Origin: Stutzerimonas stutzeri
GTDB lineage: Bacteria > Pseudomonadota > Gammaproteobacteria > Pseudomonadales > Pseudomonadaceae
Length of the DNA: 64,000 nt
Assembly: GCF_024448955.1 (NCBI RefSeq)
Contig: NZ_JAMOIH010000001.1
Location: forward strand, 1-64,000
Reading direction: 5' to 3'
The translations under genes were made by a program, and so were the position numbers. Numbering within the stretch: position 1 is the stretch's first letter; the number at the start of each line of letters is the position of its first letter. The notes beneath the pieces are model-generated. The model was given only the letters and a program-made list of their open reading frames with translations. It was not told the DNA's origin and made no database searches. This document shows, one piece after another, positions 7,579 through 24,912 of the stretch.

Positions 7579-7688
<110 letters not shown>

Positions 7689-7795
7689 TGAGTGGCCTTT
7701 TCGTTTCTATGTCCTGTCACTTGCGCAAAGCAACGTCGCTTGCTGAGCGCGCCGCTAAATAACTGAATAGAAACGCTTTCTTTTCGGCTTTTAGG

Positions 7796-7814
7796 TTGAC
7801 AGCCTCATGTCAGC

Positions 7815-7823
<9 letters not shown>
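7796..7823 (+). promoter_or_regulatory. Promoter of the second tRNA-fMet gene
   Basis: A perfect -35 box TTGACA (7796-7801) is followed after 16 bases by TAGAAT (7818-7823). It looks stronger than the promoter of copy 1. Confidence 0.75.
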
Positions 7824-7919
<96 letters not shown>

Positions 7920-7933
<14 letters not shown>

Positions 7934-7948
7934 ATGAGTGGCCTTTTT
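7920..7948 (+). terminator. Terminator after tRNA-fMet copy 2
   Basis: GGCCACTC pairs with GAGTGGCC, followed by five T. The loop differs by one base from the first copy. Confidence 0.9.
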
Positions 7949-8213: not shown

Positions 8214-8242
8214 TTGACTGCCGTCAGGTTCTGAATGATAAC
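8214..8242 (+). promoter_or_regulatory. Candidate promoter of the exopolysaccharide cluster
   Basis: TTGACT (8214-8219) and GATAAC (8237-8242) have a 17-base spacer. They lie behind an A-rich stretch around 8190-8200 that could serve as an UP element. This would produce a leader of almost 400 bases. The assignment rests on sequence pattern alone. Confidence 0.45.
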
Positions 8243-8405
8243 TAGGTCACACAAACGAGGCAGGATGTTTCCTCGAGTGGCAAGCCAGACAGAACCCGGT
8301 ATTGCTATTAAGTCCGCAGGGATAGCATCTCCGTAACAGCTAATTTTTGCTGTTCTGCGTTAACAGTACTCTCTCTTTATTGCTTCTCTCGAAACCCAGC
8401 CGAGT

Positions 8406-8415
8406 GCGGTAGCTT
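8406..8415 (+). promoter_or_regulatory. Upstream ops-like element
   Basis: GCGGTAGCTT fits the ops consensus GGCGGTAGYNT apart from the first G. It stands 96 bases ahead of the full ops site. Confidence 0.5.
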
Positions 8416-8500
8416 TGCCTGAAAGCCGCGCTATACGGGCCGCCCCAGGAGAAGAGGCCTACGAGAGATGGCAAGCCAAATGGCGGCAAAAGCCTGCAAT

Positions 8501-8512
8501 GGCGGTAGCGTG
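8501..8512 (+). promoter_or_regulatory. ops element (RfaH recruitment site)
   Basis: GGCGGTAGCGTG, followed by CCT, is identical to the ops core of enterobacterial JUMPStart sequences. In those systems the paused polymerase exposes this non-template sequence to RfaH. GGC and GCC at its ends can pair as the ops hairpin does. It is 126 bases before the first gene, and an RfaH homolog is encoded further down the same cluster. Confidence 0.85.
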
Positions 8513-8637
8513 CCTAATAAGAACAGGCAGCAAAAACCTCATATCTGGCGATTAATGGCGTAATTGAAGATTACGTGTACCGATCAATAATAACTTTAGT
8601 CGTCGTACTCATATGTTCATCCAAACCGGAGCTGATC

Positions 8638-9411
8638 GTGAATACCCTGTTCCGTAGCATCGATATCGAAGCGCATCAATTGATTGCCAAAGAAATGAGC
8701 GACAAGGGAAGCTCCTGCATTACCAACTTCCTTACTTCTGAACAATTAACCTCATTACAAGATCACATCCGTAATGATGCCGAAAGACATAAAGGCCAAT
8801 ACTTCGCGCACCATGGTGGCGTTGAAATAGAGAGTTCTCTATTGGGCGTTCTAGGCGCTGCGCCGGAGTTCCGGCAGATGCTTGGAAGCATTTATCAGGC
8901 GGGCATCGGGAAAACCGCGTACAGCGATGAGATTCTTAAGGTGTTGCGCTGCGTGCAGGGGAATTCAGGGCGCCGTGAGTCCAATTGCTTTCATTACGAT
9001 GCCAGCCTTGTAACCGTACTGTTGCCCATCGAAATCCCTCAAAACGGGAACGATCGGGGTGATTTGATCATGTTCCCCAATCTCCGCCGAGTACGCTCGA
9101 ATGTTCTGTTCAACGTGCTGGAAAAAATGCTGTTGCAGAACGCGCTGACCCGAAAGCTGATGACCGCAGCCATTCGCCGTCATCTTCTGAAGCCCGAAAA
9201 GCTGCAGCTGGTTCCGGGCAATCTGTATTTGTTCTGGGGCTACCGGACGCTGCATGCAAACGAGCCCTGCGACCCCGCCAGCCGCCGGGCAACCGCCATA
9301 TTCCATTATGGCGACCCGCACGCAGGCAGCTTTGCGACCCGGCTGATTCTCAAGCTCAACCAGCGTCGCGCACGACGCGCAACCGCACTCGGCACGCAGC
9401 CTACCGCGTGA
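8638..9411 (+). CDS. Putative Fe(II)/2-oxoglutarate oxygenase-like protein, first gene of the EPS cluster
   Basis: I use the GTG at 8638 (GGAG upstream); an upstream GTG at 8575 gives a longer frame with no clear ribosome site. The 257-residue product shows the spacing of a 2-oxoglutarate/iron oxygenase jelly roll: HYD at 119-121, a distal His206 in TLHANEPC, and Arg216/217 in SRRATAIFHYG. GDLIMFPN and PGNLYLFWG lie between, as in prolyl-hydroxylase-like proteins. The substrate is unknown; in this context a sugar, lipid carrier or nucleotide-sugar intermediate is conceivable. Family assignment comes from motif geometry only. Confidence 0.6.
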   Translation: MNTLFRSIDIEAHQLIAKEMSDKGSSCITNFLTSEQLTSLQDHIRNDAERHKGQYFAHHGGVEIESSLLGVLGAAPEFRQMLGSIYQAGIGKTAYSDEILKVLRCVQGNSGRRESNCFHYDASLVTVLLPIEIPQNGNDRGDLIMFPNLRRVRSNVLFNVLEKMLLQNALTRKLMTAAIRRHLLKPEKLQLVPGNLYLFWGYRTLHANEPCDPASRRATAIFHYGDPHAGSFATRLILKLNQRRARRATALGTQPTA

Positions 9412-9479
9412 CCGAACCCGGCCTCGGCCAGAGGTTTTCACCTATCGATCTCGACGTGACTACCGATAAGGACATCGCG

Positions 9480-10661
9480 ATGATCAATGTCACCAAATCC
9501 TATCTAGGCAACAAAGCCAAGTTTCTGGGCTACGTCGACAGCATCTATGCGTCCGGTTGGCTGACCAATCACGGGCCGCTGGTCACCGAACTGGAAGATC
9601 GCCTACGCGATTACCTGGGTGTCCGAAACATCATCCTCACCAATAACGGCACCTTGGCGTTGCAGATCGCCTATCGGGCATTGAACCTGTCCGGCAGCGC
9701 CATCACGACCCCGTTCAGTTTCGTTGCGACCACCAGCTCGCTGCAGTGGGAAGGTATCCGGCCGATCTTCGCCGACATCGACAAGGCCAGCTGGAACATG
9801 GACCCGCAGGCTATAGAGGCGCGGATCGACAGCGACACCCGCGCAATCGTCGCCACGCATGTCTTCGGTAATGCCTGCGATGTGGAAGGCATCGCGCGCG
9901 TCGCCGAGCGGCATCGGCTGAAGGTCGTCTACGACGGTGCCCATGCATTCAGCGTGCGCTACAAGGACCGCTCGGTTTTCCACTGGGGTGATGTCAGCAC
10001 GCTCAGCTTCCATGCAACCAAGCTGTTCCACACCATCGAAGGAGGGGCCATCGTCACCAATGACGATGCATTGGCGGCAAGGGTTCGTTTGCTGTGCAAC
10101 TTCGGCATCGTCGACACAGACACCATCGACGGTATCGGCATCAACGCCAAACTCAACGAGTTCGCTGCGGCCATGGGCCTGTGCATCCTGGATGACATGG
10201 CATTGATTCTGGAGCAACGGGAGGTGATCGCCAGGCGCTACGAAGACCAGCTGGGTGATTACTTCGACCTGCAGCACCAGCAGCCGTACTCCCAGCGCAA
10301 CCATAGTTATTTCCCGATTGCCCTGGCAAACGAAGACCAGTTGCTGCGCTGTCGAAGAGCGCTGAACGCCAAGGGCATCAACCCCAGACGCTACTTCTAC
10401 CCTTCGCTGGACACTCTCGGCTATCTGCAGCCGCAGCCGCCGCAAATACAGTCGAGAACCCTGAGCCGTCGGGTGCTGTGCCTGCCGATCTATCCAGGCC
10501 TGCCGCGGCATATCCAAGACACGGTTATTCAGACGCTGGTGCACGAATCTTCGCGACGCAGCCAGCGGCAAACCGAGCGCTTCTGGCCACAGACCAACGC
10601 TACCGATTTGATGGAACAGCGTTTCAGCCTGCCCGATTCTGGGTTCAAGAATATCTACTGA
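9480..10661 (+). CDS. DegT/DnrJ/EryC1/StrS aminotransferase
   Basis: A PLP-dependent sugar aminotransferase, 393 residues from the ATG at 9480, which has AAGGA upstream and gives the usual family N-terminus (INVTKSYLG then SGWLTNHGPLV). A GTG at 9408 overlapping the previous stop is an alternative. PLP-binding residues include Asp152 in YDGAHA and Lys181 in SFHATKLFHTIEGGA. Such enzymes convert NDP-4-keto or 3-keto-6-deoxyhexoses to amino sugars, so the polymer probably contains an amino-deoxy sugar. The matching synthesis enzymes are not in the window. Confidence 0.9.
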   Translation: MINVTKSYLGNKAKFLGYVDSIYASGWLTNHGPLVTELEDRLRDYLGVRNIILTNNGTLALQIAYRALNLSGSAITTPFSFVATTSSLQWEGIRPIFADIDKASWNMDPQAIEARIDSDTRAIVATHVFGNACDVEGIARVAERHRLKVVYDGAHAFSVRYKDRSVFHWGDVSTLSFHATKLFHTIEGGAIVTNDDALAARVRLLCNFGIVDTDTIDGIGINAKLNEFAAAMGLCILDDMALILEQREVIARRYEDQLGDYFDLQHQQPYSQRNHSYFPIALANEDQLLRCRRALNAKGINPRRYFYPSLDTLGYLQPQPPQIQSRTLSRRVLCLPIYPGLPRHIQDTVIQTLVHESSRRSQRQTERFWPQTNATDLMEQRFSLPDSGFKNIY

Positions 10662-10684
10662 TTCATTAGCGGCGGCCCGACTAC

Positions 10685-12211
10685 ATGTCTGATCGAAAGC
10701 TATCGATGTTTCGCAACACCGGCCTGAGTTACGCTGGTCAAGCGTACGCCCTGCTCATCGGCATCCTCGTTCTACCCTTCTATCTCGGGCATCTTGGTGC
10801 TGAAGCCTACGGCCTGATCGGTTTTTTCGCGGTGCTGCAGGCCTGGTTACAGCTGCTGGACGCCGGGCTGTCACCGTCGCTGGTCCATCGGATTGCGCAC
10901 TATCGCGGGCGGCTCGCCAGTGGCGCGCAGTGCTACGAGCCCGGACAGCTGCTGCGCTCGTTTGAAATCATCTTCTTGCCATTGGCATCGCTGACGGTTC
11001 TGAGCGTTTATTTCTCCAGTGGCTGGATCGCTCACCAATGGTTGCAAGCGCAGGAGCTGAGCACAGACACCATCATTCAGTGCATCAGCCTGATGGGTCT
11101 GATGGTCGGCCTGAAGCTGTACGCCACTCTTTATAAGAGCGGCCTGCAAGGCCTCGAACTGCACGCATGGCTGAACGGCGCCAACATTCTGATAGCGACG
11201 CTGCGCTATTTCGGCGGCCTGTTTCTAGTGGCCAATGTCAGTCAGAACCCTCTGGATTTCTTCCTGTTCCAGACGGCGGTCGCTCTGTTCGAGACGCTGG
11301 TGTTTGCCGTCAAGGCCTATGCGCTGATGCCTAACCCAACGATCCTGACCGGATTCGACTGGGCCGTGGTCAAGCCGGTATTGCCGTTCGCCGCCGGCAT
11401 GTCGCTCACCTCGGTGCTGTGGATCATCCTGACGCAGCTGGACAAGGTGTTGCTATCCAACGTGTTGATGCTCAAGGAGTACGGTTATTTCTCGCTGGTG
11501 GCGCTGATGTCGACCGGCATCATGACCCTCACCAATCCGCTGGTGCAGACGCTACTTCCACGCATGACCATGCTCGTGGCCGAGAACCGGATCGCCGACA
11601 TGCAGGCGCTCTACCTGAACGCCACACGATTCGTCTGCAGCCTTTTGTTCCCGCTCTCGGGGGTCATCGCCTTTCACTCCGCCGAGCTGGTCTTCGCCTG
11701 GACTGGCGATGCAGAAGCGGCGCAATGGAGCCGGCTAGTGTTGCCTTGGTATGTGGTCGGTAGCGCGATCATGGCCGTCACCGCCTTCCAGTTCTATCTG
11801 CAATACGCCTACGGGCAGCTGCGCCTGCACGTGTGGTTCAGCCTGGTCTCAGCAGCACTCAGCATTCCGCTGGTGGTTTATGCGGCACTCGAGCATGGCG
11901 TCTATGGCGCAGCGCTGGCCTGGTTCGGGCTGCGCATGCTGACGTTTCTGATCTGGCCGTCGATGGTGCACAAGCGCTTCGCCCCCGGCCTGCATCGGCA
12001 ATGGCTAGAGGATTTGTTGCGCATTACCGCCATGACAGGCCTGGGTCTGTTGATCGGAGAACCCGTGTTCGTGTCGATCGCGAGCGACAACCGCTTCGAC
12101 ATTCTTCTGGGACTGGCAGTCAGCGGTCTGATCTGCCTGGCACTGGTTACCTTCACATCCAAGCCCGTCGTAATGCGGCTTTACGTACTGATGACCAAAT
12201 CGAGCGTCTGA
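10685..12211 (+). CDS. Wzx-type oligosaccharide flippase
   Basis: A polytopic membrane protein of 508 residues with about 12-14 helices and the polysaccharide-transporter (MATE-like MOP superfamily) pattern, for example the N-terminal FRNTGLSYAGQAYALLIGILVLPFYLGHLGAEAYGL region. It should flip undecaprenyl-linked repeat units to the periplasmic face for Wzy. It begins 23 bases after the aminotransferase and ends one base before the next start codon. Confidence 0.88.
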   Translation: MSDRKLSMFRNTGLSYAGQAYALLIGILVLPFYLGHLGAEAYGLIGFFAVLQAWLQLLDAGLSPSLVHRIAHYRGRLASGAQCYEPGQLLRSFEIIFLPLASLTVLSVYFSSGWIAHQWLQAQELSTDTIIQCISLMGLMVGLKLYATLYKSGLQGLELHAWLNGANILIATLRYFGGLFLVANVSQNPLDFFLFQTAVALFETLVFAVKAYALMPNPTILTGFDWAVVKPVLPFAAGMSLTSVLWIILTQLDKVLLSNVLMLKEYGYFSLVALMSTGIMTLTNPLVQTLLPRMTMLVAENRIADMQALYLNATRFVCSLLFPLSGVIAFHSAELVFAWTGDAEAAQWSRLVLPWYVVGSAIMAVTAFQFYLQYAYGQLRLHVWFSLVSAALSIPLVVYAALEHGVYGAALAWFGLRMLTFLIWPSMVHKRFAPGLHRQWLEDLLRITAMTGLGLLIGEPVFVSIASDNRFDILLGLAVSGLICLALVTFTSKPVVMRLYVLMTKSSV

Positions 12212-13141
12212 ATGGACATGGAACTGAAAAACGAGCAGGACTTGATGGCGGCCTGGGGCGACAGCCGGGAACCGCTGTTGAGCATCGTCTGCCTGGCCTA
12301 CAACCACGCAGCTTTCATCAGGGAAACGCTGGAGGGGTTCCTCCGGCAGGAAACGGACTTCCCTTTCGAGGTGATCGTTCATGACGACGCCTCGACCGAC
12401 ACCACCGCGGCGATCATCCGTGAATACGCCGCGCGCTTCCCGAGCGTGATCAAGCCGATCTATCAGTGCGAAAACCAGTACCGCCAAGGTGTGCCGTTCA
12501 GCACGCGATTGTTCGCACAAGCGCGCGGCAAGTACATCGCCTATTGCGAAGGGGACGATTACTGGATCGACCCGCGCAAGCTGCAAATCCAGGTCGACTT
12601 TCTCGAACAACACCGCGACTACGTGATGACGTACCACGATGCGTTCATGTTCAACAGCCAAGGCGTGGTGCGCAGCCCGCACTTGCAGGGCAAATATCGA
12701 AGGGACGCAACCGCCCGCCAACTGATGCAGGCGCGCCCAGTCTCAACCTTGACGGTGTGCTTTCGTAATCTGGTACAGGAACTGCCGCCTGAGCTGCACG
12801 GCGTCGAAGTGTTGGATATCTGCTGGTGGTCGTTGCTCGGAGCCCACGGCAAGGGCAAGTTCATCGAAGAGATAAAACCCGCCGCCTACCGAGTGCATGA
12901 GGGCGGGATCTTCTCCATGCGCAGCAGCAAGCAACGCATCCAGATGTCCATGCACGCCTATTACAGCCTCGCCCGCTATTACCAGCGGATCGGCAACCAG
13001 TCGCTCTACGAGTACTTCATGATCCAGGTCTTCGCCCAGGCGCTGGCATCGATTTCGCCGCTCAGCAAGCTTCAGGCGCTGAGCCAGGTATTCCAGAACG
13101 CCAGCCTCAACCTATTACGCAGGCTGATTCCAGGCGCCTGA
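12212..13141 (+). CDS. Glycosyltransferase family 2
   Basis: A GT-A fold transferase of 309 residues. The nucleotide-sugar-binding start LLSIVCLAYNHAAFI is followed by VIVHDDASTD, and the metal-binding acidic motif appears as CEGDDYW. No membrane segments are obvious. The start codon directly follows the flippase stop (TGAATG), so translation is probably coupled. Donor and acceptor are unknown. Confidence 0.88.
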   Translation: MDMELKNEQDLMAAWGDSREPLLSIVCLAYNHAAFIRETLEGFLRQETDFPFEVIVHDDASTDTTAAIIREYAARFPSVIKPIYQCENQYRQGVPFSTRLFAQARGKYIAYCEGDDYWIDPRKLQIQVDFLEQHRDYVMTYHDAFMFNSQGVVRSPHLQGKYRRDATARQLMQARPVSTLTVCFRNLVQELPPELHGVEVLDICWWSLLGAHGKGKFIEEIKPAAYRVHEGGIFSMRSSKQRIQMSMHAYYSLARYYQRIGNQSLYEYFMIQVFAQALASISPLSKLQALSQVFQNASLNLLRRLIPGA

Positions 13142-13197
13142 CAGCGCATGACCGACACCTGCCGCACCGATGGCGAATACTCAAGGAAGGATCCGCA

Positions 13198-15408
13198 ATG
13201 ACTGCCATGGCCCGCTCTTCGCTGGAATACGACGGAGACAATCGCATCGACCTGGCGCGTATTCTGCGCGTGGCGTTCGATCATAAGGCGCTGATTTTCA
13301 CCATTACCGCCCTCTTCGCCCTGCTCGGCGTCGCCTATGCCGTCGTGGCTACGCCGGTCTACCGAGCGAGCGCGATGATCCAGATCGAGCCTAAGAAGGC
13401 CGGCATAACCGGCGTGCCAGAAGCCATACCTCGGCCGAACTCGGTTTCCCAGGCGGTGACCGAGATCGAACTGATCAAGTCGCGCTCGGTACTAGGGCGC
13501 ACGGTCGATGCGCTGAAGCTCTACATCACCACTCGCCCCAAATACCTCCCACTTCTCGGCAGCTATATGGCGCGTCAGCATGATCCAGAGACGGACGGCG
13601 AACTCGCCGCGCCTCTGCTGGGTATGAGCAGCTATGCCTGGGGCGGCGAAAAACTGGACATATTCCAGTTGGATGTGCCCGAAGCCTATCTGGGTGAAAA
13701 GCTGATCCTACGTGCCGGTAGTGCGGGTGCTTTCAGCCTGTATGACGCGGACGAGAAATTGCTACTGAGCGGCAAGACCAACGAAGCCGTGCAGCACGAG
13801 GGCTTTCGCGTACAGATCGCCGAACTCAAAGCCCGCCCGGGTACGGAATTCGCCGTCGTGCGCAGCCGTCCGCAAACCACAGCACTGGATTACCAGAAGC
13901 GCCTCAAGGTGGGTGAAGCCGGCAAGGACTCGGGAATCATCTACCTCACCCTCGAGGATCCGGACGCAGACAAGGCCAATCACGTGCTCGATCAGATCAG
14001 CCGTCTGTATGTGCGCCAGAACATCGAGCGAAGCTCCGCCGAAGCAGCACAGCGCCTGGAGTTTCTACGCTCGCAGGTACCGCTGGTACGCAAGGAGCTG
14101 GAGAAGGCAGAAGCGGCGCTCAACGACTACCAGACCAGCGCGCAATCGGTCGACATCAGCATCGAAACCAAAGGTGTGCTGGATCAGGTCGTCGCGCTGG
14201 AAGCACAGATTTCCGAGCACGAACTCAAGCGCACCGAATACAACCAGCTGTACACGCCGGAGCACCCTACCTACCAGACGCTGATGAAAAAGATCGGTCA
14301 GCTGCAGGCACAAAAAGCTGCGCTGATGGGCAAGATCGACACACTGCCGATGACTCAACAGGAATTGTTGCGCCTCAATCGAGACATGCAGGTCACGACC
14401 CGCACCTACACCCTGCTATTGGACAAGGCCCAGGAGCAGGACATCTTGCGCGCAGGCACCATCGGCAACGTGCGCATCATCGACAACGCCTACTCGGTGG
14501 TGGAGAAGCCGGCCAAACCGATCAAGCCCCTGGTCGTACTGGTCGCCATATTCGTCGGTCTGCTGGTGTCGGCGATGGTGATCCTGCTACGCCAGGTGTT
14601 CTATCGCGGCGTAGAGAGCCCCGAGACCATCGAACATCTGGGTATTCCGGTGTACGCCGCTCTGCCTTTTTCACCAAAACAGGAACACCTTTACCGGCTC
14701 AGGAAAATTCGCGACGGAAGAAGCAAGCTGCTGGGCACGGCCGATCCGGCCGATCTGGCCATCGAGTCACTGCGCAGCCTGCGTACCAGCCTCAAATTCG
14801 CCATGCTCGAGGCACGTAATCAAGTGCTGGTGGTCACCAGCCCGACCCCCTCGGTGGGCAAGTCCTTCGTTTCCAGCAATCTGGCATCGGTGATCGCCCA
14901 GGCGGGTCAGCGCGTGCTGCTCATCGATGCCGACATGCGTCGCGGTTATCTGGCTGGCGTGTTCGGCATGGCGCCGCGCAGCGGTCTGTCCGATGCACTG
15001 GTTAGCGGGCTGCGTCTCGCCGCGGTCATCAACAAGACCGACCAGGCCAACCTGCATTTCGTTGCCAGCGGTTGCAGCGCGCCAAATCCGTCCGAGCTGC
15101 TGATGCACGACAATTTCGCGAAGTTGCTCAAAGAGGCGGAGCGCGAATACGACTTCGTCATCATCGATACACCACCGGTATTGGCCGTGACGGATGCCGT
15201 GCTGGTCGCGCAACAGGCTGGCACCTGCCTACTGGTCGCGCGCTATGGGTTAAGCACCGCCAGCCAGATCGAAGCATCCAAGCGGCGGCTGGCGCAGAAC
15301 GGCGTATTGCTCAAGGGCGCCATTCTCAACGGCGTCAAGCGTAAGGCCTCGAGCACCGCCTATGAAACCGGCGCTTACGGCTATTACAGCTACTCTCAGA
15401 AAGCCTGA
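13198..15408 (+). CDS. Polysaccharide co-polymerase/tyrosine autokinase (GumC/Wzc type)
   Basis: A 736-residue inner-membrane protein. A Wzz domain with a first membrane helix at about 32-52 is followed by a periplasmic coiled region and a second helix near 440-465. The cytoplasmic bacterial tyrosine kinase domain has a Walker A variant TPSVGKSF near 547-554, LLIDADMRR (Walker A') and FVIIDTPP (Walker B). The C-terminus is a Tyr cluster (YETGAYGYYSYSQ) typical of autophosphorylation sites. It controls chain length and export in Wzy-dependent systems. No outer-membrane OPX partner is encoded in this cluster. Confidence 0.93.
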   Translation: MTAMARSSLEYDGDNRIDLARILRVAFDHKALIFTITALFALLGVAYAVVATPVYRASAMIQIEPKKAGITGVPEAIPRPNSVSQAVTEIELIKSRSVLGRTVDALKLYITTRPKYLPLLGSYMARQHDPETDGELAAPLLGMSSYAWGGEKLDIFQLDVPEAYLGEKLILRAGSAGAFSLYDADEKLLLSGKTNEAVQHEGFRVQIAELKARPGTEFAVVRSRPQTTALDYQKRLKVGEAGKDSGIIYLTLEDPDADKANHVLDQISRLYVRQNIERSSAEAAQRLEFLRSQVPLVRKELEKAEAALNDYQTSAQSVDISIETKGVLDQVVALEAQISEHELKRTEYNQLYTPEHPTYQTLMKKIGQLQAQKAALMGKIDTLPMTQQELLRLNRDMQVTTRTYTLLLDKAQEQDILRAGTIGNVRIIDNAYSVVEKPAKPIKPLVVLVAIFVGLLVSAMVILLRQVFYRGVESPETIEHLGIPVYAALPFSPKQEHLYRLRKIRDGRSKLLGTADPADLAIESLRSLRTSLKFAMLEARNQVLVVTSPTPSVGKSFVSSNLASVIAQAGQRVLLIDADMRRGYLAGVFGMAPRSGLSDALVSGLRLAAVINKTDQANLHFVASGCSAPNPSELLMHDNFAKLLKEAEREYDFVIIDTPPVLAVTDAVLVAQQAGTCLLVARYGLSTASQIEASKRRLAQNGVLLKGAILNGVKRKASSTAYETGAYGYYSYSQKA

Positions 15409-15427
15409 TACGTGCGAGGGACCTGCC

Positions 15428-16168
15428 GTGCTCAGAACCGCAGCGATGATGCAACCCTACCTGTTTCCTTACCTGGGCTACTTCCAGCTGATCGCTCACA
15501 GCGATGCCTTCGTGCTGGGTGACGACCTTCAGTACGTCAAGGCTTCGTGGATCAATCGCAACAGGGTACTGGTGAACGGGCAGCCTAAATTGATCACCTT
15601 TCCCCTGCGCAAGGGTGGCCAATTCGACCCGATCAACCAGCGCTGGCTATGCGAGGACTTCCCGCAGGAAGCCCAGAAGCTGCTGAGGACGCTGGAATTC
15701 GCCTACGCCCGCGCCCCTCATCACGATGAAGTGTTCGCGCTGATTCACCGGATCCTGACGCATCCGGAGCGCAATCTGGCCCGGTTCATCGAACATTCCA
15801 TCCGCTGCATCTGCGCGCACCTGCAGATCACAACACCTATCCATATCGGGTCGGAGATGGGATTGCCGACCCGCATGGACAAGCAGGAGCGCGTCATTGG
15901 CCTCACGAAAATGCTAGGTGCAGAGCGCTATATCAACCCCATCGGAGGCATGGCGCTGTACTGCCCCGCGCTTTTCCGAGCTTACGGCCTGTCACTGCGC
16001 TTTCTGCGCATGGACGACCTGAGTTACCCCCAGTTCAGCCAACCTTTCGTGCCTGCGCTATCGATCATCGACGTGCTGATGTTCAACAGCCAGAACGATG
16101 TGCAGGGCCTGCTCAAGCGTTTCTCTCTCGTTGAAGGGATCGAGCAGCAAGCCGCATTGCAGGCATGA
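15428..16168 (+). CDS. WbqC family protein
   Basis: 246 residues beginning at a GTG with GAGGG upstream; a longer frame overlapping the kinase gene lacks this. The WbqC family start MMQPYLFPYLGYFQLI, then DDLQYVKASWINRNRVL and the INPIGGMALY block are all present. The family is common in O-antigen and capsule loci and often sits with DegT aminotransferases. Its chemistry is not firmly established; a role in acylating an amino sugar is an inference from this repeated association. Confidence 0.85.
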   Translation: MLRTAAMMQPYLFPYLGYFQLIAHSDAFVLGDDLQYVKASWINRNRVLVNGQPKLITFPLRKGGQFDPINQRWLCEDFPQEAQKLLRTLEFAYARAPHHDEVFALIHRILTHPERNLARFIEHSIRCICAHLQITTPIHIGSEMGLPTRMDKQERVIGLTKMLGAERYINPIGGMALYCPALFRAYGLSLRFLRMDDLSYPQFSQPFVPALSIIDVLMFNSQNDVQGLLKRFSLVEGIEQQAALQA

Positions 16169-16223
16169 ACGACATCGACAAAACGGACTTCAGCAACCTC
16201 ATCTCTATGGAAGGCAGCTTCAC

Positions 16224-16727
16224 ATGTCAGCGCTCGGCAACAATCCACACTGGTACCTGATACAAACCAAACCCCGTCAGGAAATCCGCGCCGAAGAGAA
16301 TCTTCAACGCCAGCACTTCGAGTGTTACAGGCCACACAAGCCAAGCACTTCCGGTGATGGCAAAGCAGACGAAGCGTTGTTTCCCGGTTATTTGTTCATC
16401 CGCCTCGATCGGCACATGGACAACTGGTATCCCATCCGTTCGACCCGAGGCGTCGCCCGAGTGGTGTCTTTTGGCAGCGAACCCACACCGGTTCGGGACG
16501 AACTCATCGAGCAGCTGCGCCAGCGACTCGCGGCCCCGGCAAAGAAGCCGAAGTTCCAACCTGGCGAGCGTGTGCATCTGCAGGGTGGCGGCTTCAACGA
16601 ACTCGAGGCGATCTTCGTCAGCGACGACGGAGACGAACGTTCGGTGATCCTTCTGAAGCTGTTGCAGCGTGAACAAAAAGTCCGCGTGCCAACCCGCTAT
16701 CTCAGTGGTTGCGTCGCGCAGCCCTGA
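16224..16727 (+). CDS. rfaH: RfaH-like transcription antiterminator (NusG paralog)
   Basis: The 167-residue protein has a NusG N-terminal domain (WYLIQTKPRQEIRAEENLQRQ, LFPGYLFIRLD, IRSTRGVARVVSFG) and a KOW-containing C-terminal half (FQPGERVHLQGGGFNELEAIF). It aligns along its length with E. coli RfaH as I remember that sequence. RfaH binds polymerase paused at ops and carries it through long operons while recruiting ribosomes. Two ops-type sites lie in the leader of this same cluster about 7.7 kb upstream. I chose the ATG at 16224 over a longer frame starting inside wbqC. Confidence 0.9.
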   Translation: MSALGNNPHWYLIQTKPRQEIRAEENLQRQHFECYRPHKPSTSGDGKADEALFPGYLFIRLDRHMDNWYPIRSTRGVARVVSFGSEPTPVRDELIEQLRQRLAAPAKKPKFQPGERVHLQGGGFNELEAIFVSDDGDERSVILLKLLQREQKVRVPTRYLSGCVAQP

Positions 16728-16764: not shown

Positions 16765-18024
16765 ATGAAGATTCTGTTTCTGCACAGCCTGTACGCACCC
16801 CACGTCGGTGGTGGCGCGGAAATCGTCGTGCGCCAGTTGGCTGAAGGCCTTCAGGGCCGAGGCTGCGACGTAACGGTGCTGGCCACCGGCCCGGAGGCCG
16901 GGTTGCGTGAGGAAACGCTAGGAGGCGTGCGAATCTATCGCGCCGGCCTGTACAACCTTTACTGGCACTTCACCCAGAGCCGGCCCAACCTGCTGCTGCG
17001 CCTCGGCTGGCATTACCGCGATCGCTACAACCGCCGCATGCGCCTGTACGTTCGCGAGGTGATCGCACGCGAGCAGCCGGACGTGGTGATTTGCCACAAC
17101 CTGACCGGATGGTCGATCTCCGCGTGGGACGAGATCAGCGCGGCCGGCGTGCCGATCGTTCAGGTGCTGCATGATCTCTATTTGCTGTGCCCCAAGGACA
17201 CCATGTTCAGCAAAGGCCGCAGTTGCGAGCGCCAGTGCGGTATGTGTTCGGCTTTCCGTCAGCAACACGCGGGAGCCTCGGCACAGGTCGCCGCGGTAAT
17301 CGGTGTCAGTCGCTTCATTCTGGACCGGGTGTCCGGGCACGGGTATTTCAGCCGGGCCAGCCACCACGTGGTGCATAACAGCACCACGCCGAGCGAAAGC
17401 GCACCGCGCACGCCGCGTCATAACCACAGCGGCCTGTTGCGTTTCGGCTATATCGGCACGCTGTCGGAAAACAAGGGCGTGGGGTGGTTGATCGAACAGT
17501 TCCAAGAACTGTCAATCAACGCCACCCTGGAAATCGCCGGCCGCGGCAAGCTGGACGATGAAGCACAACTGAAGGCAAAGGCCGACCCGGCCAAAGTCCG
17601 CTTCGTCGGCTATCAGAAGGCCGCCTCCTTCATGAGCAACATCGACGTGCTGGTGATGCCTTCGATATGGGCCGAGCCCTTCGGGCTGGTAGCCGTCGAA
17701 GCCTGTGCCCAGCACCTGCCCGTCATCGCAACGAACATGGGTGGCCTGCCGGAAATCATCCAGAACAATCTCAACGGGCTGCTCTGCTCACCGGCCGATC
17801 CCGACTCGCTTGGCAGAGCGATGCTCAAGCTCTATCTGGACAGCGGCCTGCGCCAGCGGTTATCGCAGCAGGCGCATGGCAGCGTTGCGCCATTTCTAGA
17901 CATGGAACGCATGCTTGATCAGTACCAATCAATCCTGCATGCCGCGCTACACGGCCGGAGAGCCCACGATGACGCCGTTTTCACTGACTACACCGCATCC
18001 CAGATCGAGCCCGCTGGCGATTGA
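16765..18024 (+). CDS. Glycosyltransferase family 4
   Basis: A GT-B retaining transferase of 419 residues. The N-terminal glycine-rich acceptor loop is LYAPHVGGGAEIVV, and the C-terminal donor site is EPFGLVAVEA, the EX7E motif, followed by TNMGGLPEII. The start at 16765 with GGGG upstream is preferred to an in-frame start at 16669 inside rfaH. It overlaps the polymerase gene by 56 bases. Confidence 0.88.
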   Translation: MKILFLHSLYAPHVGGGAEIVVRQLAEGLQGRGCDVTVLATGPEAGLREETLGGVRIYRAGLYNLYWHFTQSRPNLLLRLGWHYRDRYNRRMRLYVREVIAREQPDVVICHNLTGWSISAWDEISAAGVPIVQVLHDLYLLCPKDTMFSKGRSCERQCGMCSAFRQQHAGASAQVAAVIGVSRFILDRVSGHGYFSRASHHVVHNSTTPSESAPRTPRHNHSGLLRFGYIGTLSENKGVGWLIEQFQELSINATLEIAGRGKLDDEAQLKAKADPAKVRFVGYQKAASFMSNIDVLVMPSIWAEPFGLVAVEACAQHLPVIATNMGGLPEIIQNNLNGLLCSPADPDSLGRAMLKLYLDSGLRQRLSQQAHGSVAPFLDMERMLDQYQSILHAALHGRRAHDDAVFTDYTASQIEPAGD

Positions 18025-19303
18025 CAAGCCGACCCTGCTGACCTTGATCGCGGCCTCACTGCTGATCAGCGAAACCTTTGCCGGGGCGCTGCGCTATTAC
18101 CTCGATATCGCCGGTATCTCCGCCCTGCTCTACCTACCAAAGCTGGCTTGTTTGGCAGCAGTGGCGCTCGAGTTGCCACGCGCGCGAAGCAGGCCCGGCG
18201 TATGGCTGGTGCTATTTGCATTGGTGGTTTCAAGCTCGTTCGCGCTGCTTCACGGGGCTTCGCTGAGAAACGTCGGCTTCAGCCTGTTCATCTATATTCC
18301 GCTGCTGTTCGGGCTGTTCTGCGGCACCTATCTGGAACGCAGAACCGTCCTGTTGGGCTGGGTGATCGGGCTATGTCTGATGGCCTCTCTGCTAGGCATT
18401 GCACTGGATATGTTCACCCAGGTGCCATGGAAGGGGTACAGCTACATGATGGGCGATGTCGAGGTGACCGCGAACAAATCCTGGGCCTTTGGCAGTACCG
18501 ACCGTCTCGCCGGCTTCGCCCGCATGTCGACCAATCTGGCGGTGATGATCGCGCTGTACAGCCTGTTTCTGGCAGCGTTCCTGCGCACCCGACTGCTGCG
18601 GATGATGCTCTACCCGCTGGCATTCGGCGCGATCTTTCTCACCACCAACAAGTCCACCGCCGCGGCTTATCTGCTGACGCTGATGATGCTGTTCCTCGCC
18701 GGATATCGCATGCCCAGCGCCACGGCGTTTTTCATTGCGGTGCTGACGGGAATGGCATTGCCGATCGCTAGCCTGCTGCTGAACATTCCGCAGGCCGAGG
18801 CCTACAGCGGCAGCATGCTTGCGTCCTTCAACGACCGTCTGATCCATAGCTGGCCGAATTTCATTGAGGTGATTACCAACGAAGGTTGGGGTTGGTGGGG
18901 TGCAGGTTTCGGTGCGGTAGGCAGTAGCGCAGCGGTCTTTCCACTGGCTTGGCTGGAACTGCTGAGCATCGCTGACAACACGGCGCTGTATCTCTGGGGA
19001 ATGCTCGGTGTGTTCGGCGTGCTGCTGTATCTGCTGTTGTTCCCCTTGCTGCTGCGCCTGCACGACCGTGGCCCGCGCATTCGTGACGCCCTGCTAGGCA
19101 TCGTCTTCTGCACCTGCCTGATCGGCTGGGCGACCGATGTATTGGAAGTCACCACCTCCACCCTGTTCCTCGGTATGGCCATCGCCCACGTCCTGACGCC
19201 TCGGGACGTGCTTCATCGAGGGACGTACAGCCAGATCACCACAGCACAACCGCATGGCGGCCTTGAACCGCATGCCTCTAGACACAGGGACGAGCGACCA
19301 TGA
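17969..19303 (+). CDS. Wzy/O-antigen ligase family membrane protein
   Basis: A very hydrophobic protein of 444 residues with roughly 11-12 helices and a larger periplasmic loop around residues 300-345, the pattern of Wzy polymerases and WaaL ligases. Given the flippase and chain-length kinase nearby, polymerase is the likelier role. The ATG at 17969 has GGAG upstream; the longer frame would overlap the previous gene by over 100 bases. It overlaps the glycosidase gene by four bases. Confidence 0.8.
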   Translation: MTPFSLTTPHPRSSPLAIDKPTLLTLIAASLLISETFAGALRYYLDIAGISALLYLPKLACLAAVALELPRARSRPGVWLVLFALVVSSSFALLHGASLRNVGFSLFIYIPLLFGLFCGTYLERRTVLLGWVIGLCLMASLLGIALDMFTQVPWKGYSYMMGDVEVTANKSWAFGSTDRLAGFARMSTNLAVMIALYSLFLAAFLRTRLLRMMLYPLAFGAIFLTTNKSTAAAYLLTLMMLFLAGYRMPSATAFFIAVLTGMALPIASLLLNIPQAEAYSGSMLASFNDRLIHSWPNFIEVITNEGWGWWGAGFGAVGSSAAVFPLAWLELLSIADNTALYLWGMLGVFGVLLYLLLFPLLLRLHDRGPRIRDALLGIVFCTCLIGWATDVLEVTTSTLFLGMAIAHVLTPRDVLHRGTYSQITTAQPHGGLEPHASRHRDERP

Positions 19304-20622
19304 GTACCCGCCTCAATTTTTGCCGTCTGGCACTTGTCGCGGCCATATCCGGCCTGGCGCTGCAGTCACCGGCGCAGCAGCCGGAAGACCCGTTCATCCT
19401 CGGCGTCTGCTCGCATGACCTGCATTTACGTGACAGCCGCAGCCAAGGCAATCAACTGTTGCGCGATGCCGGTATCGAGTCGGTACGAACCGACGCGCAC
19501 TGGGCGTTTCTCGAACGTAACCGCGATCGGCTCAAGGTGGAGCCGCACTGGTACCGCTATCTCGCCGGCACCGAAGCGCAGGGGCTCGATAGCCTGTTCA
19601 TTCTTGGTTACGGCAACATCTTTCATGGCGACGGGGAAAAGCCACGCAGCGAACCGGTACGCGCCGCATTCAATCGCTACGTCGCATTCGTCGCACAGCA
19701 GTTCCGCGGCCGCGTCAAACACTACGAAGTCTGGAACGAGTGGGACGTCGAGAACCCGACCGATCCGCAATTCACGCAGGACTACGCCCGGTTGATCGCC
19801 GACGCAGCGGGCGTCATTCGCCAGCATGATCCGGACGCCAAAGTGTTGGCCGGCGCGGTGACCACCAAAGGCATCGAATCCGGTTTCGCCCTGCGCCTGA
19901 TCGAAGCCGGCGTGATGCAATCGATCGACGGCCTCTCGCTGCACCCATACGTACATTGCCGTGGCCGGGGGAAGAACACCCCCGAGGCCTGGATCGAATG
20001 GCTTGCAGACGTTGACATGGAATTGTCAGCCGCCGCCGGCCAGCCGGTGCCGCTGTATCTGACGGAGATGAGCTGGCCGGCCTATCAGGGTTCCTGTGGC
20101 ATCGACGAAAGCCTGCAGGCCGCTTATCTGGCGCGCAGCTTTCTGCTCGTCAAGACGCTGCCCAACGTGCGGGGCTACTGGTGGTACGACTTGCGAAACG
20201 ACGGCACCGACAAGCGTGAGCGGGAGCACAACTTCGGCCTGCTTCGGCAGAACTACACCCTGAAGCCCGCGTATCGGGTGCTCAAGGTGGTCAGCCCGAT
20301 CATCCAGAACTACCAGTTTCTTGGACATGTCGACGGACCCAGAAAAGACACCGTTCTGATGCGCTTCGGTAACGCTGAAGAACAGCTTCTCGTCGCCTGG
20401 AGCACCGACCAGGCACGCTCGGTCAGCATTGAATCCGCGGGCAAGGCAACCGGCGCGCTGGAGCTGATCGATACCGAGCATCCTGAAAACGGCCGAACCC
20501 AAAGCGACGCGGCATGGAATTGCCCGGCCGACGCGAACAACTGCACCGCCAATATCGAACTCGATGGATTTCCGAAAATCATCAGCCTCGGCAAGTCCGC
20601 TGCGGCTCGCTCCGGCTCCTAG
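19300..20622 (+). CDS. PslG-like GH39 glycoside hydrolase
   Basis: A 440-residue exported clan GH-A hydrolase. After a signal peptide (1-25) comes a TIM barrel, with the acid/base Glu147 in VWNEWD and the nucleophile Glu256 in LTEMSWP, 109 residues apart, nearly as in PslG of P. aeruginosa. A C-terminal beta domain follows. PslG-type enzymes cut their own exopolysaccharide in the periplasm and are needed for normal polymer release. It is embedded in the biosynthesis operon, overlapping wzy by four bases. Confidence 0.8.
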   Translation: MSTRLNFCRLALVAAISGLALQSPAQQPEDPFILGVCSHDLHLRDSRSQGNQLLRDAGIESVRTDAHWAFLERNRDRLKVEPHWYRYLAGTEAQGLDSLFILGYGNIFHGDGEKPRSEPVRAAFNRYVAFVAQQFRGRVKHYEVWNEWDVENPTDPQFTQDYARLIADAAGVIRQHDPDAKVLAGAVTTKGIESGFALRLIEAGVMQSIDGLSLHPYVHCRGRGKNTPEAWIEWLADVDMELSAAAGQPVPLYLTEMSWPAYQGSCGIDESLQAAYLARSFLLVKTLPNVRGYWWYDLRNDGTDKREREHNFGLLRQNYTLKPAYRVLKVVSPIIQNYQFLGHVDGPRKDTVLMRFGNAEEQLLVAWSTDQARSVSIESAGKATGALELIDTEHPENGRTQSDAAWNCPADANNCTANIELDGFPKIISLGKSAAARSGS

Positions 20623-20669
20623 CAGAAGCTCTCGACTCGTGAACAGTTTTTTGAAAAGGGGAATTTCAG

Positions 20670-21785
20670 ATGATTGTGATCAATGCCCGCTTTCTGACCC
20701 AGGAAATGCGGGGTGTACAGCGCTTCGCGGAACAGATCAGCCTGCAGCTCGGATGCCTGCGCGATGACCTGGTCTTCGTTGCGCCAAACGACATACGCCT
20801 ACACGACAGTGCCGAACAGCTGCAGGTACGCCGCATCGGGCGCCACCGAGGCCATCTCTGGGAACAACTGGACCTCCCGCTGTGGCTCGCACGCAATGGC
20901 AGCCCACCGCTGGTCTCGCTCTGCAATACCGCCCCGCTCGCCTATGGCAACCAGATCGCGACCCATCATGACATTACCTATGTCAGGCATCCGGAAAGCT
21001 ATTCGAGAGCGTTCCGGGCCATCTATCGCAATCTGACACCGCTGTTACTCAAACGAATCAAGGCGCTGATTACCGTGAGCGAATTTTCCCGGGAAGAGAT
21101 AGCTCGCTTCTATGGCTATCCGGCACGCCACATTTGCGTGGTGCCCAACGCCGTGGACGCGCGCTTTCAACCCTTCTGCGCCGAGCAATGTCCGCGTGGC
21201 TCGGCGCCTTATCTGCTGGCGGTGTCATCGCCCAGCGCGCACAAGAATTTCGCCAGGATGGTCGCGGCATTTCTGAAACTAGAAGGGTTCGATGAAGTCG
21301 AGCTGCGCATCATTGGCGACTCGAACCGAATCTTCTCCGGCAGCGTCCATGACGTGGCCGGCAGCCGACGCATCCGCATGCTTGGCAGGCTCACCGATCA
21401 GGAGCTGGTGGAGGCCTACCAGGGCGCAACGGCCTTCGTGTTTCCGTCGATTTACGAAGGCTTTGGCATCCCCCCGCTCGAGGCGCAGGCCTGCGGCTGC
21501 CCCGTCATCGCGGCACGTGCCGCCTCCATTCCAGAAGTCCTGGGCGACAGCGCGCTGTACTTCGACCCGTTGAAGGTCCAGGACATCGCAGATTGCATGC
21601 AGCGGGTCCTGCGCGACGAGGCCTTACGCCAGGATCTGCGGCGGCGTGGCAAAGCGAACGTAGCGCGGTACTGCTGGAATGCGTCCGCCCGGCAGGTATC
21701 CCGGCTGATCGACCAGGCGTTCACCGGGGTGAGTGATGGTAGGAAAGCAGACCTACAGCTCCCGCTCAGCCAGCCCAAGCACTAA
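20670..21785 (+). CDS. Glycosyltransferase family 4 (mannosyltransferase-like)
   Basis: 371 residues with a GT-B fold. The start IVINARFLTQEMRGVQRFAE is typical of WbpY/WbpZ-like mannosyl- or rhamnosyltransferases. The donor site reads PSIYEGFGIPPLEAQACGCPV, which contains the EX7E pattern. AAAGGGG precedes the start at a somewhat long distance. Sugar specificity cannot be read from the sequence. Confidence 0.88.
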   Translation: MIVINARFLTQEMRGVQRFAEQISLQLGCLRDDLVFVAPNDIRLHDSAEQLQVRRIGRHRGHLWEQLDLPLWLARNGSPPLVSLCNTAPLAYGNQIATHHDITYVRHPESYSRAFRAIYRNLTPLLLKRIKALITVSEFSREEIARFYGYPARHICVVPNAVDARFQPFCAEQCPRGSAPYLLAVSSPSAHKNFARMVAAFLKLEGFDEVELRIIGDSNRIFSGSVHDVAGSRRIRMLGRLTDQELVEAYQGATAFVFPSIYEGFGIPPLEAQACGCPVIAARAASIPEVLGDSALYFDPLKVQDIADCMQRVLRDEALRQDLRRRGKANVARYCWNASARQVSRLIDQAFTGVSDGRKADLQLPLSQPKH

Positions 21786-21926
21786 CCGAGCGAACGCCGA
21801 CAGAAGCCCGGCCATGCCGAGTGCGTCCACAACCACCTGCCGCATCGCCGCGGCACTCCCAAACTTCAGTCGCCGACCGATCGCCGATTGATCCCGCTGC
21901 CACTCTTTATCCATGAAGGCTAACGT

Positions 21927-23144
21927 ATGAAAATCGCCATTGTTCATGACTGGCTGGTGACCTACGCAGGCGCCGAACGGGTGCTTGCCGGGCTGCTTGA
22001 GACCTGGCCGGAAGCAGACCTGTTTGCCGTCATCGACTTCCTCTCCGACGAAGATCGGGCCAGTCTCGGCGGCAAACGCGCCACAACCACTTTCATCCAA
22101 CAACTGCCCAAGGCGAAGACGCACTACCAGAAGTATCTGCCCCTGATGCCCCTGGCTATCGAGCAGCTCGACATGTCGCCCTATGACCTGGTGATATCCA
22201 GCAGCCATGCCGTGGCAAAGGGCGTACTCACCGGGCCGAACCAACTGCACATCAGCTACGTGCACTCGCCGATCCGCTACGCCTGGGACCTTCAGCACCA
22301 GTATCTCCACGAGGCCAGTCTGGACCACGGTCTCAAGGCCAAACTGGCGCGCATGCTGCTGCACTACATGCGCATGTGGGACCAGCGCACCGCGAGCGGC
22401 GTGGACGAGTTCATCGCCAACTCTCACTTCATCGGCCGGCGCATCAACAAGAGCTATCGCCGTGAGTCGACCGTGATATATCCGCCCGTCGACACCCGCC
22501 AGTTCACGTTACATGCCGATAAAGAGGATTTTTATCTCACGGCATCTCGGATGGTGCCCTACAAACGCATTCCGATGATCGTCGAAGCCTTTTCGCGCAT
22601 GCCAGACAAGAAGCTGATCGTGATTGGCGCCGGGCCCGAAATGGAAAAGGCAAAGGAGCTCGCAACACCGAACGTGACGCTGATGGGCTATCAGAATTTC
22701 GCCGTGCTGCTGCATCACATGCAACGCGCCCGCGCCTTCGTGTTCGCTGCGGAGGAAGATTTCGGCATCGCGCCCATCGAGGCTCAAGCCTGTGGCACAC
22801 CCGTCATCGCCTATGGGAAAGGTGGCGTGCTCGAAACCGTGCGGGGGATCGATCACCCCGAGCCGACAGGGATCTTCTACGCCGAGCAGACGCCTGAATC
22901 CCTGATTGCAGCGGTCGCGGAGTTCGAATCGGAAGCGCATCACATATTGCCCGACACTTGCCGTGCAAGCGCGGAGCGTTTTTCAACCGAACGATTCAGG
23001 CAAGAGATTAAGACCTTCGTCGATACTAGGGTTCGCGAGGTTTCCTTGCTTCAGGGACAGGATGCGCTATTGCCCCGACCGACCGTTGCACCGGTGAGCG
23101 TCGCACCGGTTTACCCAACGGCGGTTCCAATGAAGCCCGCCTGA
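21927..23144 (+). CDS. Glycosyltransferase family 4 (WbaZ-like)
   Basis: 405 residues. The start KIAIVHDWLVTYAGAERVL and the block YVHSPIRYAWDL match the WbaZ branch of GT4 enzymes. The donor motif EEDFGIAPIEAQACGTPV is intact. The last 25 residues are Pro/Val-rich and probably disordered. A 141-base gap without a gene separates it from the previous transferase. Confidence 0.88.
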   Translation: MKIAIVHDWLVTYAGAERVLAGLLETWPEADLFAVIDFLSDEDRASLGGKRATTTFIQQLPKAKTHYQKYLPLMPLAIEQLDMSPYDLVISSSHAVAKGVLTGPNQLHISYVHSPIRYAWDLQHQYLHEASLDHGLKAKLARMLLHYMRMWDQRTASGVDEFIANSHFIGRRINKSYRRESTVIYPPVDTRQFTLHADKEDFYLTASRMVPYKRIPMIVEAFSRMPDKKLIVIGAGPEMEKAKELATPNVTLMGYQNFAVLLHHMQRARAFVFAAEEDFGIAPIEAQACGTPVIAYGKGGVLETVRGIDHPEPTGIFYAEQTPESLIAAVAEFESEAHHILPDTCRASAERFSTERFRQEIKTFVDTRVREVSLLQGQDALLPRPTVAPVSVAPVYPTAVPMKPA

Positions 23145-23177
23145 TAAGGACCCCATTTCAATTGCGAGGTTTCAAGG

Positions 23178-23516
23178 ATGAACACAGCAACCGCAACTCA
23201 ACGAGTCCAGACCACCTGCGTATTAGGCCTCGCCCTGCTGATCAGCGGGACGACAGGCGCCGTCCATATCGCCCAGCACACCGACGGTGAACTGTATCGA
23301 CAAGGGCACGAAAGCTTCGCACGGGACGTGCCCAGCTGTGCCAACAACTCGGTGGGCCGGGCGATTATCTTCGATCATGGGGCTCGCCGGATCGCACCAT
23401 CGTGCGGTGCCACCAATGGGTCCGTGACGGTCACGCCCCCGCCAGTACGCCTGGCGAGACCGCTCTCCGATAGCCAGTACATCCGCTCTGGCGACAGCAT
23501 CCGCTACTCGTTTTAA
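23178..23516 (+). CDS. Small exported protein of unknown function
   Basis: 112 residues with a predicted signal peptide (hydrophobic stretch VLGLALLISGTTGAVHIA) and two Cys in the mature part. No family is recognised. GAGG lies upstream and the gene fits the polarity and spacing of the operon. Confidence 0.55.
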   Translation: MNTATATQRVQTTCVLGLALLISGTTGAVHIAQHTDGELYRQGHESFARDVPSCANNSVGRAIIFDHGARRIAPSCGATNGSVTVTPPPVRLARPLSDSQYIRSGDSIRYSF

Positions 23517-23539
23517 CCCTGCGACCTTTTGGAGGTGCC

Positions 23540-23764
23540 ATGGACAGTGCAGACCAAAATAGGCAATCGCTGGTTTACGCCGACGGTTATTCCTATACCG
23601 AAATATTCCAGGCGCCCGAGCTGCCAGGAATGCCCAGTGGAAGCCGATTGATCAGCGTCTTCCATGCATTCTTTATCGCAGACCGGGACACCGACATTAT
23701 CGGTGCCGATCTGGCCACAGTACCGCCCGATACCGAGATGACCGAAACCGCCAGCGACCTCTGA
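23540..23764 (+). CDS. Small acidic protein of unknown function
   Basis: 74 residues, acidic, with no signal peptide. It has a strong ribosome site GGAGGT nine bases before the ATG, and its start lies 24 bases after the previous gene. No family is recognised. Confidence 0.5.
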   Translation: MDSADQNRQSLVYADGYSYTEIFQAPELPGMPSGSRLISVFHAFFIADRDTDIIGADLATVPPDTEMTETASDL

Positions 23765-23866
23765 AACTCCGGTCCACAGACTTTCACTGCAGCGCTTCAA
23801 GCGCCTCACCGACGGCGTTGCGCCGTTGACGCGACAGTCGTTCCGCGATTCATGCCGAGACACCCC

Positions 23867-24865: not shown

Positions 24866-24912
24866 CCAATCGCCGGCGGCTCCCCGCTGCCCAGCTCATC
24901 GAGGGATGGTTC

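What the first reader, a model, noticed from the sequence alone, without database searches (positions are those of the whole stretch)
8406..16727. RfaH paralog encoded inside the operon that carries its own ops signals
A full ops core (GGCGGTAGCGTG, 8501-8512) and a second ops-like sequence (8406-8415) lie in the leader of a cluster of about 17 kb, and an RfaH homolog is its seventh gene. Known operon-specific NusG paralogs (LoaP, UpxY, TaA, ActX) are usually first or unlinked. If this protein acts only on this leader, full-length transcription needs a product made only by read-through, a layout that can create on/off switching. Two tandem ops sites could give a two-step loading signal.
Basis: partly seen in the sequence, partly recalled or inferred. 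Interest (0 to 1): 0.78.

Follow-up and report, generated by a model that had tools for sequence, protein, structure and literature searches.

The report
Sugar-coat operon carrying its own antiterminator
A long exopolysaccharide operon carries, as its seventh gene, the elongation factor RfaH, which is probably recruited at two start-region signals of that same operon, so its full expression may depend on its own product; self-encoded factors of this kind are known, but the conserved double signal looks like a new variant.

Summary
The window comes from a Stutzerimonas-like genome. A full ops (8501-8512) and a second ops core (8405-8416) lie in the leader of an exopolysaccharide operon that matches the published EPS273 locus of P. 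stutzeri 273; rfaH (16224-16727) is gene 7. It is the only RfaH found in this genome, and the leader holds the only match to the ops pattern outside a long reading frame. The layout is conserved: two exact GCGGTAGC cores in 42 of 46 leaders from Stutzerimonas and Pseudomonas, with rfaH 6-9 kb downstream. Motif counts alone are not above chance; conservation is the evidence. Second RfaHs in the genus use another layout: rfaH first, one ops after it. Best reading: RfaH made by basal read-through loads at the tandem ops and amplifies its own operon. RfaHs inside EPS operons are already described, and the RfaH of EPS273 was proposed as that locus's activator in 2017, so this is a new variant of a known kind. 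On/off switching does not follow from the layout: in a toy model one site, or two either/or sites, gave no bistability. There are no expression data, and AlphaFold leaves the fold state open.

The parts
8214..8242 (+). Probable promoter, TTGACT - 17 nt - GATAAC; start of transcription near 8250 (inferred)
   Evidence: CTTGAC, TTCTGAA and TAA.TA invariant in the 9 leaders aligned, of 38; not flagged by the consensus scan
8405..8416 (+). Upstream (distal) ops-like site TGCGGTAGCTTT
   Evidence: Sequence; core GCGGTAGC conserved in related leaders
8501..8512 (+). Downstream (proximal) ops site GGCGGTAGCGTG
   Evidence: Exact match; core conserved; weak JUMPstart RNA match 8484-8512, 17 bits against gathering score 35
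8638..9411 (+). Gene 1, GTG start chosen by eye, oxygenase-like (label by eye)
   Evidence: ORF; no Pfam or NCBIfam hit
9408..10661 (+). Gene 2, DegT/DnrJ/EryC1 aminotransferase
   Evidence: PF01041, 285 bits
10685..12211 (+). Gene 3, Wzx-like flippase
   Evidence: Weak NF041503 and MurJ matches below cut-off; 508 aa like EPS273-Q
12212..13141 (+). Gene 4, GT2 glycosyltransferase
   Evidence: PF00535
13198..15408 (+). Gene 5, Wzc-type tyrosine kinase
   Evidence: PF23607, PF02706, PF13807
15386..16168 (+). Gene 6, WbqC-like protein (start as used)
   Evidence: PF08889, 222 bits
16224..16727 (+). Gene 7, rfaH (167 aa), ribosome site GGAAGG at 16209-16214
   Evidence: TIGR01955 173.7 bits; sequence
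16765..25983 (+). Genes 8-15: GT4, polymerase/ligase-like, glycosyl hydrolase-like, GT4, GT4, small ORF, GT2, acyltransferase (polymerase and hydrolase labels by analogy with EPS273; no family hit)
   Evidence: ORFs, Pfam, EPS273 gene list

Best explanation
The operon is self-amplifying at the level of elongation. RNA polymerase starts near 8250 and meets two ops sites about 157 and 253 nt into the leader. RfaH from rare full-length transcripts is recruited at one or both, keeps NusG and so Rho off the polymerase, and carries it through genes 1-15, including its own gene. Two sites give each polymerase two chances to load when RfaH is scarce. Shown here: the parts, their conservation, and that RfaH and an ops outside long reading frames occur once in this genome. 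Inferred: recruitment, Rho sensitivity, the feedback, the role of two sites.
For: One RfaH and one NusG in the genome; the 7 other exact GGCGGTAGNNTG matches lie in or at the edge of long open reading frames. Two exact GCGGTAGC cores in 38 of 42 leaders (36 of 38, window included; 2 of 4) and in 4 of 4 further genomes. In an alignment of 19 leaders that I chose from the 38, mean identity 33%, the invariant columns are the distal GCGGTAGC plus two bases after it, and seven of the eight bases of the proximal core. The operon's wbqC and an rfaH occur together: of 37 genus genomes 32 have both, adjacent; 4 have no RfaH and no close wbqC; 1 has another RfaH only. RfaHs of this operon form one clade, support 99/98. 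Residues for DNA contact and autoinhibition (E. coli numbering; roles from PMC7593976 passages) are kept: R73, E48, I93, F130 in 45 of 45, K10 in 42 of 45.
Against: No expression data. Most Stutzerimonas leaders have neither site as a perfect E. coli ops: position 12 is T. Two leaders have one exact copy and no second (L069, L071), and two have a second copy with one mismatch (L044, L048). E. coli H20 and N70 are N and R in the window protein. The best AlphaFold model has a beta, not alpha, KOW domain, which would favour ops-independent action. Motif counts are not above controls.
Confidence: 0.72

Rival explanations
1. RfaH acts in cis without ops: it is constitutively open (monomorphic beta) and binds the polymerase that is transcribing its gene, helping only genes 8-15.
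For: Best AlphaFold model shows a five-strand KOW domain and its top Foldseek match is fully recruited RfaH, 8phk (TM 0.49). A 2026 preprint (PMC13015549, passages seen) reports that monomorphic RfaHs sit in or next to operons and lack a few ops-binding residues; the window protein lacks H20 and N70 (their role recalled).
Against: Tandem ops conserved over two genera; E48, I93, F130 kept in 45 of 45, though the preprint says E48 and R138 are widely kept in predicted beta forms too. Only the best of five models is shown, pLDDT 75.9, pTM 0.57; the model of a Pseudomonas ortholog was poor (pLDDT 55.7).
Confidence: 0.13
2. RfaH acts at its leader, but a promoter inside wbqC or upstream supplies RfaH independently, so there is no closed loop.
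For: Consensus scans miss promoters; the scan missed the conserved leader promoter itself.
Against: wbqC-rfaH gap -4 to 55 nt in 35 of 43 loci; no sigma70-like + strand site between 8592 and rfaH in the scan.
Confidence: 0.25
3. The upstream copy is not a loading site but a pause or RNA element with another role, such as timing of a second factor.
For: It differs consistently: T11-G12 in 3 of 36 against 19 of 36 at the downstream site; G13 and C15 in 36 of 36.
Against: The ops core is the conserved part (positions 2-9 are invariant by selection).
Confidence: 0.25
4. A separate RfaH acting in trans serves this leader.
For: 11 of 37 genus genomes carry at least one more RfaH match; it may be true there.
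Against: None found in the window's genome; in 21 of 37 the operon copy is the only RfaH found.
Confidence: 0.03

Closest known systems
E. coli RfaH with ops/JUMPstart leaders (rfb, wca, waa)
   Same: RfaH family over cut-off; ops core in a polysaccharide leader; recruitment presumed the same
   Different: E. [quoted passage not shown] The rfbB, wza and waaQ leaders of K-12 have one GCGGTAGC and a bare GGTAGC 21 nt upstream, not two full cores 75-147 nt apart
EPS273 locus of P. stutzeri 273 (PMC5532660, abstract, passages and Table 1)
   Same: Same gene types, order by letter and near-equal lengths; EPS273-M is an RfaH-domain protein proposed as direct activator of the locus
   Different: Sequences were not compared. 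Its list has a sensor kinase and a response regulator and no counterpart of gene 1. The text has no ops element, JUMPstart, leader, promoter, operon or polarity; the deletions in the passages seen were eps273-HI and -O, not M
UpxY of Bacteroides fragilis
   Same: NusG paralog inside its capsule operon that prevents termination in the leader upstream of its own gene (PMC7819879, passage)
   Different: upxY is an early gene (recalled) and no ops is known to me; window RfaH scores 58.2 bits against the UpxY cut-off of 100
Shewanella CL7 RfaHs in putative EPS operons (PMC7593976, section 11)
   Same: RfaH inside an EPS operon
   Different: No ops mapping for them in the section read
Second RfaHs of Stutzerimonas (L084-L092, L095)
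   Same: RfaH, ops and a polysaccharide cluster linked
   Different: rfaH first, one ops about 90-125 nt after its stop (L091: about 345), so its own gene lies before the ops; Q in place of E48 in 10 of 13 of the group taken with L093, L094 and L102

Membership tests
RfaH (TIGR01955) | Score over curated cut-off | tested here: met
   173.7 bits against 144.5; the second RfaH model, PRK09014, is just missed, 120.8 against 124
RfaH (TIGR01955) | ops-contact residues | tested here: inconclusive
   K10 and R73 kept (roles from PMC7593976 passage); H20 is N and N70 is R (role of these two recalled)
RfaH (TIGR01955) | Autoinhibition residues E48, I93, F130 | tested here: met
   Window and 45 of 45 relatives (L054 not put in, L059 dropped for a stop near its end)
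RfaH (TIGR01955) | Alpha-helical KOW in the free state | tested here: inconclusive
   Best model beta; second model too poor
RfaH (TIGR01955) | ops in target leader | tested here: met
   that this leader is the target is inferred
RfaH (TIGR01955) | Recruitment at ops and Rho antagonism | not testable with these tools
   Needs transcription assays
JUMPstart RNA (RF01707) | Score over gathering cut-off | tested here: not met
   17 against 35 bits
UpxY (NF033644) | Score over curated cut-off | tested here: not met
   58.2 against 100 bits
LoaP (NF033641) | Score over curated cut-off | tested here: not met
   31.4 against 125 bits

The most novel reading that the evidence does not exclude
The tandem ops are a two-step gate: both must be used in order (an upstream site of weaker pause that preloads or primes, a downstream full site that commits), which makes loading cooperative in RfaH and, with rfaH locked inside the operon, a heritable on/off EPS switch that works purely at transcript elongation.
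Probability: 0.1. Interest if true: 0.8.

Novelty: new variant of a known kind. Interest (0 to 1): 0.5.

Why it matters
Wang et al. 2020 write that the modes of recruitment of operon-encoded NusG paralogs are unknown (PMC7593976, passage seen). This family gives a natural pair of layouts in one genus (rfaH before its single ops, or far behind tandem ops), so whether a self-encoded antiterminator works in cis or in trans, and whether it makes a feedback loop, can be tested directly. If the loop is real, EPS output has a delay or memory set by elongation, not by initiation.

Tried and rejected
Motif counting as evidence was rejected: ops hits are not in excess in window or genome, nor is the loose tandem pattern in the genome (2 against 4 for the control; the other hit, on C18, lies in an open reading frame). 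A general tandem-ops habit found no support: a strict tandem pattern occurs in 2 of 390 genomes of the order, the window's among them, control 0 (that pattern misses the TTT forms, and the sample is drawn thinly). JUMPstart RNA membership failed. Bistability from layout alone was not borne out by a toy model (its 'max 2' for one site is a grid artefact). Structure prediction did not settle the fold state.

Rows dropped or not reached: L042 and L054 end before the leader; L062, L069, L071, L081 lacked gene 1 and were counted apart. In one search the gap could be computed for 35 of 43 loci; L069 and L071 have no wbqC match. The extra RfaHs of genome G004 were not fetched. The whole-genome and genome contigs sets overlap in strains, and all these sequences are related, so counts are not independent. 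Positions 2-9 are invariant by selection. The groups in the tree were set by me, and the tree tool warned of long branches among the other RfaHs.

Literature: 8 searches of open PMC papers, seen as listings with the start of abstracts, and passages or sections of seven papers (PMC7593976, PMC13015549, PMC2864571, PMC5532660, PMC4465626, PMC2871177, PMC7819879). In these I saw no description of tandem ops or of this operon's leader. 'Not in print' means no more than that.

Full report
What is there. The window is contig 1, bases 1-64000, of a 4.35 Mb genome, 99.99% complete. The nearest named locus by RfaH is Stutzerimonas stutzeri SD25545 (99%; records of the window's own genome may be left out there). 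Behind two tRNA-Met genes starts a one-direction cluster of about 17.3 kb: oxygenase-like protein, DegT aminotransferase, flippase-like protein, GT2, Wzc kinase, WbqC, RfaH, then glycosyltransferases, a polymerase/ligase-like protein, a glycosyl hydrolase-like protein and an acyltransferase. Gene types, order and lengths match the published EPS273 locus of P. stutzeri 273 (abstract, passages, Table 1), except that EPS273 also lists a sensor kinase and a response regulator and no counterpart of gene 1; sequences were not compared. There the RfaH-domain protein EPS273-M was proposed as direct activator of the locus, and deletion of the kinase gene left the polysaccharide hardly detectable.

The leader. 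A promoter-like sequence, TTGACT-17-GATAAC at 8214-8242, is conserved in the nine leaders aligned out of 38. The ops sites follow at 8405-8416 and 8501-8512. Neither is statistically notable as a bare motif. Conservation decides. In 38 leaders (37 loci in which gene 1 was found, plus the window) GCGGTAGC occurs at least once in 38 and at least twice in 36, the top 8-mer in an enumeration that was not told what to look for; in 200 Markov shuffle sets no 8-mer was doubled in more than 3 leaders (relatedness is not corrected for). The two exceptions have a second copy with one mismatch (L044, L048). Of the six loci without gene 1, two contigs end before the leader, two have both sites, and two (L069 P. 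graminis, L071 P. tremae) have one site only. Four more genomes have both (L096, L097, L098, L103). That makes 42 of 46 leaders with two exact cores. Core spacing is 75-147 nt, median 103, over 36 pairs, so it is not strict. The two sites differ: the downstream one has the T11-G12 of E. coli ops in 19 of 36, the upstream one in 3 of 36, and the upstream one is followed by G13 and C15 in 36 of 36. E. coli rfbB, wza and waaQ leaders have one full core and a bare GGTAGC 21 nt upstream, a different design.

The protein. RfaH scores over the RfaH cut-off (TIGR01955) and under those of NusG, UpxY and LoaP; a second RfaH model is just missed, 120.8 against 124 bits. The genome has this RfaH and one NusG. 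The seven other exact genome matches to GGCGGTAGNNTG lie in or at the edge of open reading frames of 152 to 537 aa (whether each frame is a gene was not tested), so RfaH and a leader ops form a closed set here, within that pattern. E48, I93, F130 and R73 are kept in 45 of 45 relatives. AlphaFold gave a beta KOW domain at moderate confidence for the window protein and a poor model for a Pseudomonas ortholog. Only the best of five models is shown, so the fold state is open. This matters: a 2026 preprint (PMC13015549, passages) links beta-only RfaHs to action in cis, though its Table 1 also counts 17 of 212 fold-switching RfaHs next to an operon.

Position of the gene. In the 37 genus genomes, an rfaH lies right after the operon's wbqC in 32: 72-97 nt between the two matches in 31, about 1.4 kb in one (G007). 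Four genomes lack RfaH and a close wbqC (G008 has a weak wbqC match of 83 bits with a stop inside); one (G020) has another RfaH only. In 21 of 37 the operon copy is the only RfaH found, in 11 there is at least one more. Among the 43 genome-contig loci, 41 have wbqC before rfaH and two (L069, L071) do not; the gap is -4 to 55 nt, median 6, in the 35 where it could be computed, and 55 nt in the window. So any separate promoter would have to lie inside wbqC. RfaHs of this operon form one clade, 46 rows. Twelve of the extra RfaHs of the genus were fetched (L084-L095). Ten have an ops, and it lies after rfaH: about 90-125 nt after its stop in nine, about 345 nt in L091; two (L093, L094) show no exact ops. 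A Wzc-like gene was matched at 28-31% identity behind rfaH in eight of those ten; in the one checked by family (L087) a polysaccharide export protein and a Wzc-like kinase follow. In that layout rfaH lies before the ops. In the window layout it lies behind both.

Mechanism. For E. coli (PMC7593976 passages): RfaH loads at ops-paused polymerase, excludes NusG and so Rho, and recruits ribosomes. Applied here: basal read-through gives a little RfaH, which loads at the tandem ops and raises transcription of the whole operon and of itself. This is inferred, not shown. A toy model says the loop amplifies, but with one site, or two sites of which either suffices, there was no bistable case in 3888 parameter pairs each; if both sites are needed, 543 of 3888 are bistable.

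Known or new. NusG paralogs encoded in the operon they control are known (TaA, UpxY; Shewanella RfaHs in putative EPS operons; PMC7593976 section 11, PMC7819879 passages), and UpxY already acts on the leader before its own gene. What I did not see in the eight paper searches and seven opened papers is a conserved tandem ops leader, or the two mirror layouts of rfaH and ops within one genus. I file it as a new variant of a known kind.

Noticed in passing
26110-27711: A dCache-GGDEF diguanylate cyclase gene follows the operon on the same strand (gap 126 nt); the EPS273 list also has one, so EPS output may be tied to c-di-GMP.
   Followed up: partly
7592-7947: Two tRNA-Met genes (7592-7668, 7837-7913) with like sequence behind each and a terminator-like hairpin at 7920-7947 (listed on the - strand) precede the EPS leader.
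   Followed up: partly
L084-L092, L095: Second RfaHs have rfaH first and one ops after its stop; Q replaces E48 in 10 of 13 of the group taken with L093, L094, L102, hinting at weaker autoinhibition.
   Followed up: partly
L097 10815-12203: In genome G007 about 1.4 kb with an opposite-strand ORF lies between wbqC and rfaH; nature not tested.
   Followed up: no
L101 12096: In G055 an ops lies on the opposite strand upstream of a divergently read rfaH, on the strand of a cluster with a Wzc-like gene (45%): a third linked layout.
   Followed up: no
8229-8244: TTCTGAA inside the promoter spacer is invariant in 9 of 9 leaders aligned; it may be a regulator or alternative sigma site.
   Followed up: no
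L109: Genome G301 of the order has a strict tandem ops pair, cores 110 nt apart; context not looked at.
   Followed up: no
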